Assembly: GCF_030540765.1 (NCBI RefSeq)
Contig: NZ_JAUOEL010000005.1
Location: 372,001 to 436,000 of the forward strand
DNA: 64,000 bases
Direction of reading: 5' to 3'
Origin: Flavivirga jejuensis
GTDB taxonomy: Bacteria > Bacteroidota > Bacteroidia > Flavobacteriales > Flavobacteriaceae
This document shows, piece after piece, positions 13,746 through 20,727 of the stretch. Each line of letters opens with the position of its first letter. Positions within the stretch are counted from its first letter, which is position 1. Made by a program: the position numbers and the translations under genes. The notes under the pieces were generated by a model. It was not told where the DNA came from. It saw only the letters and a list, made by a program, of their open reading frames with translations, and made no database searches.

Positions 13746-14354
13746 ATGGCTTTCGAATTACCGAAATTAGCATATGCGTATGATGCATTAGAACCTCATA
13801 TTGATGCTCGTACTATGGAGATACATCATTCTAAACACCATCAAGGATATACAAACAATTTAAATAATGCCATTGCTGGAACAGATTTAGAAGGAAAATC
13901 TATTGAAGATATACTTGGGAATTTGGATATGAATAATGGTGCTGTGAGAAATAATGGTGGCGGTTTTTACAATCACTCATTATTTTGGGAAGTAATGAAC
14001 CCAGAAGGAAAAGGATATTTATCTGGAGAATTAAAAGATGCTATAGAAGCTGCTTATGGTTCTGTTGATGATTTTAAAGCTGCTTTTTCTAAAGCTGCAG
14101 GAACACGTTTTGGTTCAGGTTGGGCTTGGTTGTGTGTACATAAAGGAGGTAAAGTAGAAGTTTGTTCTACGCCAAATCAAGACAATCCATTAATGCCAGG
14201 AGTTAGTTGTGGAGGCACCCCTATTTTAGGTATTGATGTTTGGGAGCACGCTTATTATTTAAACTATCAAAACAGACGTCCAGATTATATTAATGCCTTT
14301 TTTAGTGTTATTAATTGGAATGAGGTTGAAAGACGTTACGCTGAAGCAAAATAA
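13746..14354 (+). CDS. sodA: Superoxide dismutase (Fe/Mn family, Mn-like)
   Basis: A 202-residue cytoplasmic enzyme that dismutates superoxide. All metal ligands are present: His27 (EIHHSKHH), His77 (FYNHSLFW), Asp164 and His168 ([11 protein letters not shown]). The outer-sphere Gln145 in [10 protein letters not shown] and the Gly-rich [10 protein letters not shown] favour the Mn-type or cambialistic group over Fe-specific enzymes. The metal cannot be fixed from sequence, so the symbol sodA is provisional. It is a single-gene unit with its own terminator. It faces the small-RNA array, which is transcribed toward it. Confidence 0.95.
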
Positions 14355-14380: not shown

Positions 14381-14414
14381 AAAAACGCCTGGTATTTACC
14401 AGGCGTTTTTTTTT
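14381..14414 (+). terminator. Rho-independent terminator of the superoxide dismutase gene
   Basis: The hairpin AAAACGCCTGGTA / TACCAGGCGTTTT is followed by a run of nine T, 27 bases after the stop codon. A-rich 5' flank would also let it act on the minus strand. Confidence 0.9.
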
Positions 14415-14779: not shown

Positions 14780-14849
14780 GAAAAAGGTGAACGAATGTTC
14801 ACCTTTTTGCCCCAAATCTACCATGAACTTAACCTACTTATGTTATGGT
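14780..14849 (-). ncRNA. Putative small RNA, array copy 1
   Basis: Predicted minus-strand transcript of about 70 nt. A TATATTTG element (14861-14854) fits the Bacteroidota -7 consensus a few bases before the conserved body, which starts near CACCATAACATAAG. The body can fold (ACCAT with ATGGT, AAC with GTT). The RNA would end at a 12-bp hairpin, AAAAAGGTGAAC around ATTC, with a T-tract. No ribosome-start context or useful open frame exists. I do not recognise it as a known family; the target is unknown. Confidence 0.6.
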
Positions 14850-14853
14850 GAGA

Positions 14854-14861
14854 CAAATATA
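14854..14861 (-). promoter_or_regulatory. -7 promoter element of small RNA copy 1
   Basis: TATATTTG on the minus strand, a full match to TAnnTTTG, placed 2 bases outside the 44-base conserved core. No clear TTG was found at -33, so the promoter may be weak or need an activator. Confidence 0.5.
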
Positions 14862-15017
14862 TATATCTTGTAGAGATTGATAAAATATTTTAGTTAAACG
14901 GCTGATATATTGGCTTAAACGATTTTGGGAAAACATTATTAAGAAAAAAGAGATAAAAAAATAATTTTTTGAAATGAATTCAGATGAAACGCGTTCAGAA
15001 AAGAAACTAAATTGTAT

Positions 15018-15090
15018 AAAAAAAGGTGAACAGATGTTCACCTTTTTTTGCCCCAAATCTACCATGAACTTAACCTACTTATGTTATGGT
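15018..15090 (-). ncRNA. Putative small RNA, array copy 2
   Basis: Same body as copy 1, base for base. The terminator is stronger: GGTGAAC / GTTCACC around ATCT, flanked by seven A and seven T. The -7 element TATATTTG is kept at 15102-15095. Predicted length is about 73 nt. Confidence 0.6.
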
Positions 15091-15094
15091 GAGT

Positions 15095-15102
15095 CAAATA
15101 TA
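15095..15102 (-). promoter_or_regulatory. -7 promoter element of small RNA copy 2
   Basis: TATATTTG on the minus strand at the same distance from the conserved core as in copy 1. Confidence 0.5.
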
Positions 15103-15243
15103 TATAGCTTATATAGAATTGATAGAATATTTTAGTTAAACGGCTGATATATTGGATTAAACGATTTTTTAAAGCTGTTATTAAGTGAAAAGAGATAAGA
15201 AATAATTTTTTGAAACGGGTTCAGAAAAGAAACTAAATTGCAT

Positions 15244-15316
15244 AAAAAAAGGCGAACAGATGTTCACCTTTTTTTGCCCCAAATCTACCATGAACTTAAC
15301 CTACTTATGTTATGGT
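15244..15316 (-). ncRNA. Putative small RNA, array copy 3
   Basis: The 44-base body is identical to copies 1 and 2. One stem base differs: the minus-strand RNA reads GGUGAAC / GUUCGCC, so the change makes a G-U wobble and keeps the hairpin, whereas the plus-strand RNA would have a C-A mismatch. This supports minus-strand transcription. The -7 element is degenerate (TAACTTGG, 15328-15321), so this copy may be weak or differently controlled. It is the copy nearest purF. Confidence 0.55.
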
Positions 15317-15430
15317 GAGACCAAGTTATATGTATTTTAGGTATTCCGATTATTTTTTAGATAAACTGCGTATTTTTTAGATTAAGTGCATTTTTGTGCA
15401 GATTAAGCAGAAAATATTTACAATTTAAAA

Positions 15431-17329
15431 CTAATAAGCGCGTTCATTATTGCCTTCATAAAAGTTAATAAATGCTCTATTTACAACTCTATTCCCTCCT
15501 GGAGTAGGATAATTTCCTGTAAAATACCAATCACCTAAATGACCAGGGCATGCTTTATGCAAATTTTCGACTGGTTGAAAAATAATTTTAACTTCAGCTT
15601 TAATACTTTTATCACTTAATAGTTTAGAAATTTTATCTGAGATTTCTTCATCAGTAAAAGGATCATAAATCTCTTTTACAAAATTTTGTACATGCTTATC
15701 ATCTAAATCTTTTTGCCCAATACACTTTTTGTATACGTCTTCTACAATATGATATTTGTTTGCATCCTTTAGTAAGTCTAAAGCAGCTCTAAAAGCAACT
15801 AAGCTTTCAAGATTAGCCATATCTATACCATAACAATCCGGATATCGAATTTGTGGCGCAGAAGACACCACAATAATTTTTTTAGGATTTAAACGATCAA
15901 GCATTTTTAAAATACTCATCTTTAATGTGGTTCCTCTAACTATACTGTCGTCAATAATAACTAAATTGTCTTCAGGTTTTATTACACCATAAGTAACATC
16001 GTAAACGTGAGCCACTAAGTCGTCACGACTACTATCTTCAGTAATAAACGTTCTAAGTTTAACATCCTTTATAGCAATTTTTTCAATTCGAGTATGCTCC
16101 GATAAGATTTCGGTTACCTTTTCGGCAGATAAAGAACGTTGTCCGTTTAAAATGGTGCGGGTTTTCTTCTGGTTTATATAAGCTTCGGCAGTTTCGATCA
16201 TTCCAAAAAATGATGTTTCTGCTGTGTTTGGGATATAAGAGAAAACAGTATTCCTAGTATCATTATCAATAGCCTCAAGCACTTTTGGCATCAATAACTT
16301 ACCAAGCATTTTACGTTCTTGATATATTTCAGCATCACTACCTCTAGAAAAGTAGATACGTTCAAATGAACAAGATTTTCTTTCTAAGGGCTCTAATATT
16401 TGTTTAAAGCGTACTTCTCCAGATTTTTTAATAATAATAGCTTGTCCTGGATCTAATTCTTTTACGTCTTTAAAGTTTACATTAAAAACGGTTTGAATTA
16501 CAGGTCGTTCTGATGCAACAACAACAATTTCATCGTCTTTATAATAATATGCTGGGCGAATACCTGCTGGGTCTCTTAAAACAAAAGAATCGCCATGACC
16601 AATAAGTCCTGCCATAGCGTAACCACCGTCCCAGTTTTTTGCAGCACGTTTTAGTATTTTAGCAACTTTAAGTCGTTCTGCAATAAGCGGCGAAGCCTCT
16701 CTCTTATTATAGCCTTCTTTTTTTAGATCTTTGTATATTTTGCTTACGGCATCATCTAAAAAGTGACCAATTTTTTCCATAATAGTTATGGTGTCGGTAT
16801 ATTCTTTTGGATGCTGCCCTAATTCAAGAAGATTAGCAAAAAGCTCTTTAACGTTTGTCATGTTAAAGTTTCCTGCCATTATTAAATTTCTATGCATCCA
16901 GTTGTTTTGCCTTAAAAAAGGATGCACGCTTTCTACGCTGTTTTTACCAAAAGTACCATAACGAACATGGCCTAATAATACCTCTCCAATATATGGGATA
17001 TGTTGTTTTTGTAAAGCGACATTGTTAGCGTATTCAGGGTGAGCAGTTAATTCGTTGTTTATTCTTTCGTTTATCTTACCAAAAATATCTTGAATAGGCT
17101 GCTGTGCAATAGAACGGACTCTACTTATATAGCGTTCCCCTGGTTTTGTATCTAACTTAATACTTGCAAAACCAGCACCATCTTGACCACGATTGTGTTG
17201 TTTCTCCATCATTAGATACATTTTGTTTACACCATAAAATGCACTTCCGTATTTTTCTTTATAATATTCCAGTGGTTTTAAAAGTCTTATAACTGCTATT
17301 CCACATTCATGTTTTAAGGCATCACTCAT
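15431..17329 (-). CDS. purF: Amidophosphoribosyltransferase (PurF family, long form)
   Basis: A 632-residue enzyme of the PurF family, which makes phosphoribosylamine from PRPP and glutamine, the first step of purine synthesis. The N-terminal Ntn glutaminase domain has its nucleophile at Cys9 (HECGIAVIRL), so eight residues must be removed to expose it. The segment RGQDGAGFASI is the typical glutaminase loop. The C-terminal phosphoribosyltransferase domain has the PRPP loop VIIDDSIVRGTT near residue 460. It is about 130 residues longer than typical PurF (~500) because of extra segments in both domains. It could be a divergent paralogue, so the enzymatic call is family-level. It lies next to a PfkB kinase and close to purN. 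Confidence 0.85.
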   Translation of the reverse strand: MSDALKHECGIAVIRLLKPLEYYKEKYGSAFYGVNKMYLMMEKQHNRGQDGAGFASIKLDTKPGERYISRVRSIAQQPIQDIFGKINERINNELTAHPEYANNVALQKQHIPYIGEVLLGHVRYGTFGKNSVESVHPFLRQNNWMHRNLIMAGNFNMTNVKELFANLLELGQHPKEYTDTITIMEKIGHFLDDAVSKIYKDLKKEGYNKREASPLIAERLKVAKILKRAAKNWDGGYAMAGLIGHGDSFVLRDPAGIRPAYYYKDDEIVVVASERPVIQTVFNVNFKDVKELDPGQAIIIKKSGEVRFKQILEPLERKSCSFERIYFSRGSDAEIYQERKMLGKLLMPKVLEAIDNDTRNTVFSYIPNTAETSFFGMIETAEAYINQKKTRTILNGQRSLSAEKVTEILSEHTRIEKIAIKDVKLRTFITEDSSRDDLVAHVYDVTYGVIKPEDNLVIIDDSIVRGTTLKMSILKMLDRLNPKKIIVVSSAPQIRYPDCYGIDMANLESLVAFRAALDLLKDANKYHIVEDVYKKCIGQKDLDDKHVQNFVKEIYDPFTDEEISDKISKLLSDKSIKAEVKIIFQPVENLHKACPGHLGDWYFTGNYPTPGGNRVVNRAFINFYEGNNERAY

Positions 17330-18354: not shown

Positions 18355-18556
18355 AAAAAACCTGATAATTTTCTGCAAAGATAAGTCTTTTAAGCACGAA
18401 TTCAAGAATATTTTTTTTGAGAAAAATGTAACTTTTAACAACTCACTATTATAGATCAACAATTCACTAACTTTCCTTTTTATAGTAGATATTGATTACT
18501 CATTTTTGTTCAACCAGCATAATGCGGGTTCAAGTAATAATTTAGAAATAAAAATT

Positions 18557-19978
18557 ATGAGCAAGTTTTTAAAAGCATTTAAATATGCAAGTATTGTTAG
18601 TGTTATGGTAAACGCGATTGGGTTTATTATTTCCATTTTATTTAATGGAATAGAAAGGGTTTTAGATATTTATAAAGAAGTAGCTCCGCTATCATTATCC
18701 TTAATTTTTTTCCCTTGCTTTTTTTCAATTTATTATTTTAAAATGAATGAGTATAAAGAGTTGAGAAGAATAATCAAAACAATTATAAAACCTGCATGCT
18801 TATCGTTTATAGCGATCTATATAATATTTTATTTAACAATTACATTCTATAAAACTGATCATACTCCGATTCCCTTTTGGAATAAAGGAAGTTTGTTTAA
18901 TGGAATAACAGCAATAATTTTATTAGTTTTTAGCTCATTGATCTATTATTTGATAGTTAATAAGAATGATAGAAAAAGAACCAATAAAAATATTAGCTTA
19001 TCTGTAACAACTAGCATGTTTATATGGTTGATCATTAGTGTTTTGTATGTTTTAATTGTTAGTGTTTTGAAAGGATATTCGTTACCAATAAATTATATGT
19101 TATCTGTTACAATTAGTGGAGTTTGTGCAGCAGTATTTATGTTTCTGGTAATAAGATTTAAATACAATAAGAGGGTCGTAGTTGTTTTGGCTTATTTAAT
19201 TAATATCCTATTACTGCCTTTGTTGTTTTATGTTCTTTTAAGACCATTTGCTTTCGATTTATCGAAATATTTTCCTTCTTTTTCTTTAGTTTTTTATATT
19301 CGATCTGTAATTATGGAGGGTTCGTATTTCTTGTTTATTACGTTAACCATTCATTCTTATTTTATTTTTAAAGAAAACAAAAAACAAAAACAAAACTTAA
19401 AACAAATAGGAGTTACAGCTTCTCTAAAATATCGACAATTAAAAGCACAACTAAGTCCTCATTTTTTGTTTAATAATATTAGTGTGTTAACCGGATTAAT
19501 AGAAGAAGATCAAGAAAGAGCCATTCAATTTTCAGAGAAACTATCTCATGTTTACAGGTATTTTTTAAATCAAGAAAATCAAGATTTGGTATTGTTGAAA
19601 GACGAGTTAGTATTTGCTAAAGAGTACCTAGAGTTATTACAAGTAAGATTTGAGAACGCTATGACCTTTACAGACAGAACAGAGGATTTTTCTGAATATT
19701 ATATATTACCAATGGCATTACAGCAAGTGTTTGAAAATGTAATCAAGCATAATGAGATAAGCATGGAATCTTATATATGTATTGAGATGGTTATTGAGGG
19801 AGATTATTTAGTTGTTAAAAACAATAAAAACCCAAAAGAAGATGTTGGAAAAGGAAAACAAACAGGATTAAAGAATATTATAAATAGATACGCCTTTTTT
19901 ACGGATGAAAAAGTGATGATAATTAATGATGAACAGTATTATACCATTAAATTACCTTTATTAAAAATAGAAAACTAA
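18557..19978 (+). CDS. LytS/YpdA-type membrane sensor histidine kinase
   Basis: A 473-residue sensor kinase. The ATG at 18557 (MSKFLKAFKY) is preferred over a TTG 17 codons upstream. The first ~280 residues hold about eight hydrophobic membrane segments with no recognised periplasmic sensor domain. The cytoplasmic part has the His_kinase (PF06580) motif KAQLSPHFLFNNISVLTGLI, with the phospho-accepting His in SPHFLFN, and an ATPase region reduced to the N-box LQQVFENVIKHN and G-box GKQTGLKNIINRY. It overlaps the response regulator start by one base (TAATG), so the two form a translationally coupled pair. The signal is unknown. Confidence 0.88.
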   Translation: MSKFLKAFKYASIVSVMVNAIGFIISILFNGIERVLDIYKEVAPLSLSLIFFPCFFSIYYFKMNEYKELRRIIKTIIKPACLSFIAIYIIFYLTITFYKTDHTPIPFWNKGSLFNGITAIILLVFSSLIYYLIVNKNDRKRTNKNISLSVTTSMFIWLIISVLYVLIVSVLKGYSLPINYMLSVTISGVCAAVFMFLVIRFKYNKRVVVVLAYLINILLLPLLFYVLLRPFAFDLSKYFPSFSLVFYIRSVIMEGSYFLFITLTIHSYFIFKENKKQKQNLKQIGVTASLKYRQLKAQLSPHFLFNNISVLTGLIEEDQERAIQFSEKLSHVYRYFLNQENQDLVLLKDELVFAKEYLELLQVRFENAMTFTDRTEDFSEYYILPMALQQVFENVIKHNEISMESYICIEMVIEGDYLVVKNNKNPKEDVGKGKQTGLKNIINRYAFFTDEKVMIINDEQYYTIKLPLLKIEN

Positions 19979-20727
19979 TGAAAGTTGTGATTATAGAAGA
20001 CGAGTTGTTGTCAAGTAGGAGGTTGCAGCGTATGTTATCTGATTATAATTATGAGATCTTAGCAAATTTGGTCTCAGTAAAATCTACTATCAAATGGTTT
20101 AAAGAAAACAAACATCCGGATATTTTGTTTCTTGATGTTCATCTTTCAGACGGTTTGTGTTTCGAAATTTTTAAACACGTAGAAATAAAAAGTGTTATAG
20201 TATTTACTACCGCTTTTAGTGAATATAGTATAAAAGCATTCGATTATAATAGTGTGTCCTATTTGCTAAAGCCAATTAATAAAGAACAATTAAAAAAAGC
20301 TATTAAAAAAGCAACAGTTTTTAGTAAGAATGAAAGTGAGCTATTGGTTTTAAAAGAAGCTGTTCAAGAATATAATATCTCTGTATTTAAAAATAAGTTT
20401 GCGGTTAAACTCGGAAAAAAAATAAAACTGATTGATGTAGATGCTGTTGAATGTTTTTTTAGTTCAAATAATATTACATATTTACGTTCAAATGAATTTA
20501 ATTATATTCTAAATTCAGCATTAATAGATCTTGAAAGTGAATTAAATCCTGCTGTTTTTTTTCAAATTAGCAGGAAGTTTATTGTTAACATAAATGCCAT
20601 TAAAAATATTGTTTCATATTCTAATAGTAGATTAAGGTTAGTTTTAAGTTCTTATAATGAATGTGAGATTATTGTAAGTAGAGAGCGTGTAAAGGATTTT
20701 AAAAAATGGATCGACGGCGGAGCATAA
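19978..20727 (+). CDS. LytTR-family response regulator
   Basis: A 249-residue regulator paired with the histidine kinase upstream. The receiver domain has the acidic pocket IIEDE (residues 5-9), the phospho-acceptor Asp53 (ILFLDVHLSDG), the switch Thr in VFTTAFSEYS and the Lys in YLLKPINKEQ. The C-terminal ~100 residues are a LytTR DNA-binding domain (VDAVECFFSSNNITYL, then FQISRKFIVNINAIKNIV). LytTR regulators bind direct-repeat sites and often control envelope or surface genes. Its stop lies 2 bases from the end of rnhA, which is convergent. Confidence 0.92.
   Translation: MKVVIIEDELLSSRRLQRMLSDYNYEILANLVSVKSTIKWFKENKHPDILFLDVHLSDGLCFEIFKHVEIKSVIVFTTAFSEYSIKAFDYNSVSYLLKPINKEQLKKAIKKATVFSKNESELLVLKEAVQEYNISVFKNKFAVKLGKKIKLIDVDAVECFFSSNNITYLRSNEFNYILNSALIDLESELNPAVFFQISRKFIVNINAIKNIVSYSNSRLRLVLSSYNECEIIVSRERVKDFKKWIDGGA

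What the first reader, a model, noticed from the sequence alone, without database searches (positions are those of the whole stretch)
14780..15328. Three tandem copies of an unrecognised small RNA gene
Seen in sequence: three direct repeats (periods 241 and 226 bases) share an absolutely identical 44-base core ending in a terminator hairpin. Spacers between copies have diverged, so the core is held by selection or recent homogenisation. The arrangement resembles multicopy regulatory RNAs that act additively. The body contains a foldable ACCAT / ATGGT stem. I do not recognise the family. The position between a superoxide dismutase and purF suggests a possible oxidative-stress or purine link, but this is inference.
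Basis: partly seen in the sequence, partly recalled or inferred. Interest (0 to 1): 0.85.

Follow-up and report, generated by a model that had tools for sequence, protein, structure and literature searches.

The report
Tandem sRNA array with small-protein target
Three tandem copies of a roughly 70-base RNA gene appear to belong to an undescribed regulatory RNA family found in most sampled Flavobacteriaceae, and the RNA is complementary to the start region of one conserved mRNA for a tiny, unknown protein, which it probably switches off.

Summary
The repeats are real: a 44-base core, identical three times, on the minus strand, each copy with a -7 promoter box and a terminator. They look like three copies of a ~70-nt small RNA gene. 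No Rfam family reaches threshold. A covariance model finds the RNA in 204 of 249 Flavobacteriaceae genomes; in a phylum sample every strong hit is in that family. SodA or PurF lies in the same stretch in 114 of 118 named loci. In the own genome the best complement is the 5'UTR and start codon of a 42-codon ORF beside scoB. Homologues of that ORF occur in 150 of 249 genomes; 148 of these have the RNA. Their start regions pair with the RNA beyond chance: 88 of 104 at <=1/200 shuffles, controls 4 of 157. RNA and target often share an upstream tandem site (74 of 104). Best model: a co-regulated multicopy trans-acting sRNA that blocks translation of a small protein. Not shown: transcription, repression, the protein's function, any oxidative or purine role. 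It does not qualify as FopS.

The parts
14781..14849 (-). sRNA copy 1 (about 69 nt; predicted 5' end at 14849, terminator 14808-14781)
   Evidence: Core; terminator scan; CM hit G000:C29:386781-386858; predicted start from the -12..-5 box
15018..15090 (-). sRNA copy 2 (about 73 nt; predicted 5' end at 15090)
   Evidence: hairpin (the simple terminator scan did not list it)
15244..15316 (-). sRNA copy 3, proximal to purF (about 73 nt; predicted 5' end at 15316)
   Evidence: hairpin (not listed by the scan)
14854..14861 (-). -7 promoter box of copy 1, TATATTTG at -12..-5
   Evidence: TAnnTTTG at -12..-5 is the Flavobacterium sigma-A consensus given in PMC9723704 (passage seen)
15095..15102 (-). 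-7 promoter box of copy 2, TATATTTG
15321..15328 (-). -7 box of copy 3, variant TAACTTGG (not a full match to TAnnTTTG)
14888..14921 (-). tandem upstream site of copy 1 (two 14-mers, 20-bp period, -72..-39)
   Evidence: PWM
15130..15163 (-). tandem upstream site of copy 2 (-73..-40)
15355..15388 (-). tandem upstream site of copy 3 (-72..-39)
13746..14354 (+). sodA (superoxide dismutase), conserved flank of the array
15431..17329 (-). purF (amidophosphoribosyltransferase), conserved flank of the array
   Evidence: ORF; found in 102 of 118 named stretches; name as above

Best explanation
The feature is an array of three copies of a trans-acting base-pairing small RNA gene on the minus strand, a member of a family that spans the Flavobacteriaceae and that I found described nowhere. 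Each copy would make an RNA of about 70 nt: a 5' hairpin, a single-stranded AGAUUUGGGGC linker and an intrinsic terminator. Its conserved target is an unlinked mRNA for a protein of mostly 29-43 residues and unknown function, usually encoded beside scoB. The RNA pairs across the 5'UTR and start codon of that mRNA and so most likely blocks translation initiation. A common upstream tandem site suggests that one transcription factor drives both RNA and target, giving an incoherent feed-forward (buffering) circuit whose strength may be set by the copy number of the array. Shown by sequence: gene anatomy, family-wide conservation, complementarity beyond chance, purifying selection on the ORF, shared upstream motif in most targets of two of the three groups, co-occurrence. 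Inferred: transcription, direction of regulation (repression), the transcription factor, physiological role.
For: Core and repeats. CM hits in 204 of 249 family genomes. In a phylum sample of 296, strong hits (E<1e-10) occur in 26 of the 30 genomes listed for the window's family and in no other genome; 19 others have weak hits at E 0.003-0.1. Compensatory changes at 8 of 22 pairs, all 8 in the terminator. A BLAST of the sRNA against the own genome gave, after the three copies, the small-ORF 5'UTR at E 0.009; the next, E 0.06, is the array's own hairpin. It is also the only exact CCAAATCTACCAT outside the array in 6 Mb. ORF homologues in 150 of 249 genomes at E<=0.01; 148 of the 150 have the sRNA, the two exceptions having ORF E-values of 0.007 and 0.008. 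Duplexes against 200 shuffles, scored alike for real and shuffled: <=1/200 in 57 of 60 group A, 24 of 37 group B, 7 of 7 group C start regions; control sodA/purF start regions 4 of 157. The predicted duplex spans the start codon in 90 of 104. Group A targets favour the clade-1 sRNA in 58 of 60, against 47 of 157 controls. The ORF is coding (pS 0.40, pN 0.10), with less third-position change where it overlaps the second pairing site. A tandem motif trained on sRNA promoters recurs upstream of targets at <=1/50 shuffles in 54 of 60 A, 14 of 37 B, 6 of 7 C.
Against: No transcript or protein data were available. 56 of 204 sRNA-positive genomes had no detectable ORF, so the RNA may have other targets or the profile misses divergent ORFs; about a dozen of the 150 ORF matches are weak (E 0.001-0.01). 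13 of 37 group B targets exceed 1/200 shuffles and 7 exceed 10/200; L346, L389 and L394 show no pairing signal (183, 99 and 68 of 200). The 5' hairpin has no both-sided changes, so covariation does not support it. The AGAUUUGGGG linker is conserved even where group C targets use mainly the hairpin, which hints at further targets or a bound protein. 23 of 37 group B targets lack the shared upstream motif. Group B's preference for clade-2 RNA (31 of 37) is only somewhat above the control bias (103 of 157). In the own genome 14 further places match the 13-base site with one mismatch. Counts are not corrected for phylogeny.
Confidence: 0.72

Rival explanations
1. The sRNA is a multi-target regulator (FopS- or Qrr-like) and the small ORF is only its best conserved target; the conserved AGAUUUGGGG linker serves other mRNAs.
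For: The linker is conserved in genomes where the small-ORF pairing uses mainly the hairpin (group C). 56 of 204 sRNA-positive genomes lack a detected ORF.
Against: In the own genome two searches found no second site comparable to the small ORF, though shorter seeds were not screened genome-wide. Of 39 SusC genes over the cut-off, 30 start regions were tested: 2 at <=1/100 and 4 at <=5/100 shuffles, taking the best of several possible starts.
Confidence: 0.35
2. The small-ORF transcript is a sponge: its tandem complementary sites titrate the sRNA, which acts on other mRNAs.
For: Many group A targets carry two or three sites in tandem, some well upstream of the start codon.
Against: The ORF is under purifying selection in the own genus and is conserved in groups B and C, where few or no extra sites are seen. 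The duplex covers the start codon in 90 of 104.
Confidence: 0.15
3. Trans-encoded type I toxin-antitoxin-like pair: the sRNA array is the antidote that silences a membrane-active small peptide.
For: A mostly 29-43 residue peptide with a basic, partly amphipathic C-terminus (moment of the last 18 residues 0.43, 0.23 and 0.55 in three examples); long complementarity over the start codon; no Pfam or NCBIfam family for the three examples.
Against: The target is usually fixed beside scoB (ScoB in 97 of 111 target loci) rather than mobile; low mean hydrophobicity; RNA and target appear co-regulated in groups A and C.
Confidence: 0.15
4. The repeats are terminators, promoters or a neutral repeat family without an RNA function.
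For: Each unit does contain a terminator hairpin and promoter-like elements.
Against: The non-terminator body is the near-invariant part across genera and pairs with a conserved target.
Confidence: 0.03

Closest known systems
FopS / GibS sRNAs of Bacteroides (Rfam RF04319; PMC11697453)
   Same: Multicopy, short Bacteroidota sRNA with a terminator; shares UUCAUGGU and AGAUUU with the FopS model; pairs over a start region.
   Different: 22.9 and 20.6 bits against a gathering score of 56; tandem array; a predicted 5' hairpin instead of a single-stranded 5' stretch; best target a small ORF, SusC targeting not seen in 30 genes; no RRM protein found in the own genome.
Rfp18 of Flavobacterium psychrophilum (PMC9723704)
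   Same: sRNA conserved in flavobacteria.
   Different: Described as pairing through a third stem-loop with metalloprotease mRNAs (passage); here two hairpins and a small-ORF target.
Qrr and LhrC sRNA families (recalled; also named in a PMC11697453 passage)
   Same: Several near-identical copies; Qrr genes are driven by a two-component regulator (recalled).
   Different: Other phyla and, as recalled, several mRNA targets.
Trans-acting type I antitoxin RNAs such as IstR-1/TisB (recalled)
   Same: RNA pairing silences the mRNA of a small peptide.
   Different: Here an unlinked array of copies and a core-genome target; toxicity unknown.

Membership tests
FopS (RF04319) | Score at or above the Rfam gathering cut-off | tested here: not met
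   22.9 bits (copy 2) and 20.6 bits (copy 3) against 56; no match at gathering in the window; no FopS match for the body without terminator
FopS (RF04319) | Single-stranded 5' stretch with the R1' seed, then terminator | tested here: not met
   Predicted consensus fold has an 11-pair 5' hairpin, though without covariation support; UUCAUGGU..AGAUUU is shared
FopS (RF04319) | Targets SusC-like start regions | tested here: inconclusive
   30 of 39 SusC genes over the cut-off tested; 2 of 30 at <=1/100 and 4 of 30 at <=5/100 shuffles, best of several starts
FopS (RF04319) | RRM-1 protein partner (RbpB) | tested here: not met
   0 PF00076 matches in the own genome at E<=0.001; control Bacteroides ihuae matches
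Rfp18 | Sequence homology | not testable with these tools
All Rfam 15 families (Flavo-1 considered; its presence in Rfam is recalled) | Gathering-score match | tested here: not met
   0 matches in 64 kb
Type I toxin-antitoxin | Peptide toxic when overproduced | not testable with these tools
   Needs an experiment
Type I toxin-antitoxin | Small hydrophobic membrane-spanning peptide | tested here: inconclusive
   Three examples of 29-42 aa; mean hydrophobicity of the last 18 residues 0.15-0.27; moments 0.43, 0.23, 0.55; no membrane-span predictor was run
Multicopy trans-acting base-pairing sRNA (kind) | Several near-identical copies, own promoters and terminators, complementarity to an unlinked mRNA | tested here: met
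   By sequence; expression itself not tested

The most novel reading that the evidence does not exclude
A family-wide two-part circuit in which one regulator drives both a tandem-amplified sRNA and a single dedicated target, the mRNA of a new small protein family, with RNA and start-codon context co-evolving between clades (clade-2 RNA CCAUAG with target CUAUGG; clade 1 and group C use CAUAAG with CUUAUG). It would be a core-genome, dosage-tuned RNA-peptide module, with possible toxin-antidote or membrane-signalling function, unlike the mobile type I systems.
Probability: 0.35. Interest if true: 0.85.

Novelty: new variant of a known kind. Interest (0 to 1): 0.7.

Why it matters
Little is known of RNA regulation in flavobacteria, which are abundant polymer degraders (recalled). 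This gives a family-wide sRNA with a specific, testable target and a small protein family for which three examples have no Pfam or NCBIfam entry. It shows how both halves of an sRNA circuit can be proposed from sequence alone, and offers many natural variants (different copy numbers, three target groups) for studying dosage and RNA-mRNA co-evolution.

Tried and rejected
Rfam membership was rejected. SusC targeting by analogy with FopS is not supported. The LytS/LytTR pair at 18506-20727 as linked regulator was rejected: 0 of 28 named loci with enough sequence beyond pfkB keep it; one of 118 loci had a kinase match elsewhere. I first took the fourth own-genome hit (G000:C1:36756) for a diverged sRNA copy; its sense, promoter and ORF showed it to be a target. 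Clade-2 sites with the inserted A (CCCAAATCTTACC) were sought in 8 genomes; 14 fetched hits outside the arrays were read by eye and showed no evident small ORF. The clade-2 targets were later found by protein profile. One search compared the better of two RNA variants with shuffles of one variant; one search repeats all 104 start regions and 157 controls with equal scoring, and its numbers are used here (group A 57 of 60 as before; B 24 instead of 22 of 37; C 7 instead of 6 of 7). Literature: no description found in the searches; sought a 21-base core string (0 papers). Only openly licensed PMC papers are held, so absence from print is not shown. Of PMC11697453 I saw the abstract and outline, search passages and sections 12, 13 and 28; of PMC9723704 search passages only; all other papers as listings.

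Full report
Observation. The 44-base core occurs three times without mismatch at 14809-14852, 15050-15093 and 15276-15319; shuffles give none, and the periods are 241 and 226. The genes read on the minus strand: a -12..-5 box (TATATTTG in copies 1 and 2, TAACTTGG in copy 3), then ACCAT four bases later, then the body and a terminator hairpin. With the flavobacterial box position given in PMC9723704 (passage seen), the predicted 5' end is the A of ACCAT, where conservation begins. Predicted RNAs are 69, 73 and 73 nt.

Family. A BLAST of one copy against 60 genomes hit 33; by its table 29 of the 37 genomes of the same family have hits, while the 4 of 23 outside it match the terminator part only. 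From 52 copies (alignment A2) the predicted fold is an 11-pair 5' hairpin, a single-stranded AGAUUUGGGGC linker and a terminator. 8 of the 22 pairs show compensatory changes, all in the terminator; the 5' hairpin shows one-sided changes and a few broken cells but no compensatory change, so covariation neither supports nor refutes it. The window RNA folds 4.4 standard deviations below shuffles; the hairpin alone has z -1.8. The covariance model finds the RNA in 204 of 249 family genomes. In 296 genomes drawn from the phylum the strong hits lie in 26 of the 30 genomes listed for the window's family; 19 other genomes have weak hits at E 0.003-0.1. Two main body variants exist: ACCATAAC...GGTAGATTTGGGG, and (A/G)CCATAGC...GGTAAGATTTGGGG in the Zobellia/Maribacter/Flagellimonas group. 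SodA or PurF is in the same stretch (at most 8 kb) in 114 of 118 named loci, both in 81. Some genomes also hold copies at other places.

Target. In the own genome the next best hit, E 0.009, is the opposite sense of the RNA: a 5'UTR between scoB and a convergent ABC transporter gene (my names, from sequence and recall), CCCCAAATCTACCATAAATTTAAAAACTTATG, running into a 42-codon ORF that carries a second site near its start. It is the only exact CCAAATCTACCAT outside the array; 14 further places match with one mismatch. Related genes were then found by protein profile rather than by pairing: 143 of 249 genomes at E<=0.1 with the first profile and 150 of 249 at E<=0.01 with the wider one. Of these 150, 148 have the sRNA; G035 and G080 do not, and their ORF matches are weak. 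56 genomes have the sRNA only and 43 neither (Fisher p 3e-18, not corrected for phylogeny). ScoB is found in 97 of 111 target loci. The protein is mostly 29-43 residues and ends in ..TKKLFML or similar; three examples had no Pfam or NCBIfam family. It is coding: pS 0.40, pN 0.10 over the 66 pairs of 12 sequences, mostly of the own genus; third-position differences per codon are 7.3 in codons 1-12 and 18.1 in codons 13-42, as expected if the pairing site constrains the first part.

Pairing. Of 111 target loci, 3 gave no usable ORF end (L104, L329, L340) and 4 were repeats, leaving 104 start regions (-60..+35), taken. Each was paired with both RNA variants, the better energy kept, and compared with 200 dinucleotide shuffles scored in the same way. 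Group B (proteins with a QVY-like motif, Zobellia-Maribacter clade): 24 of 37 at <=1/200. Group C (KKVFLLM-type): 7 of 7. Group A (all others, chiefly NLP-type): 57 of 60. Failures above 10/200 are L344 and L346 in A and L333, L336, L338, L381, L389, L393 and L394 in B. Control sodA and purF start regions: 4 of 157 at <=1/200, 13 of 157 at <=10/200. The duplex spans the start codon in 46 of 60, 37 of 37 and 7 of 7 (no control was made for this). In A the start context is TTATGA in 43 of 60, in B CTATGG in 22 of 37; the latter is the exact complement of the clade-2 CCATAG. A targets pair better with the clade-1 RNA in 58 of 60, B targets with the clade-2 RNA in 31 of 37; controls prefer the clade-2 RNA 103 to 47 with 7 ties, so the A preference is clear and the B preference modest.

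Shared control. A position weight matrix trained on 133 non-redundant sRNA upstream regions finds two copies of a CATTTCATC(G/T)A-like site, usually 20-21 bp apart, at about -73 to -39 in the window copies. The same pair is found upstream of target genes at <=1/50 shuffles in 77 of 108 loci, four of them repeats, or 54 of 60 A, 14 of 37 B and 6 of 7 C without repeats. That direct repeats two helical turns apart suggest a LytTR-type regulator is recall and not tested; the LytTR gene near the window array is not conserved there.

Interpretation. Pairing over the start codon makes translational repression the likeliest outcome; stabilisation or a sponge role is not excluded. Copy number and shared upstream sites point to a buffered, dosage-set circuit. 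sodA and purF are stable neighbours without evidence of regulation. FopS membership fails on score, predicted structure and protein partner, although a short seed resemblance remains and could reflect remote ancestry.

Noticed in passing
window 18506-20727: A histidine kinase and a LytTR response regulator lie next to pfkB and purF; not kept there in 28 related loci with enough sequence.
   Followed up: yes
window 15321-15328 and related loci: The purF-proximal sRNA copy often has a -7 box ending TTGG or TTAG instead of TTTG, perhaps another sigma factor or a weaker promoter.
   Followed up: no
window 15316-15431: The terminator scan found none between purF and copy 3 (but it also missed the hairpins of copies 2 and 3), so purF transcripts may end at the copy 3 terminator; sodA has its own terminator at 14381-14410.
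   Followed up: no
G470:C4:179079-180127: Five sRNA copies with a regular 241-242 base period and similar scores: a recently expanded or homogenised array.
   Followed up: no
L037 (G026:C72) and L055 (G005:C19): Divergent sRNA-like genes that keep the linker AGATTTGGGG and a terminator but have another hairpin.
   Followed up: partly
L424-L432, L434, L436 (genus g146): Most sRNA copies have CATTAGTAGG instead of CATAAGTAGG; predicts a matching change in the target start region.
   Followed up: partly
G108 (C10, C15), G141:C1:2304656 and 2305528, G251:C17:864 and 1254: Two matches to the small ORF in one genome, some of them weak.
   Followed up: no
G000:C32:207854-210794: A SusC-like gene split into two overlapping pieces with stop codons, beside 39 SusC genes over the cut-off.
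   Followed up: no
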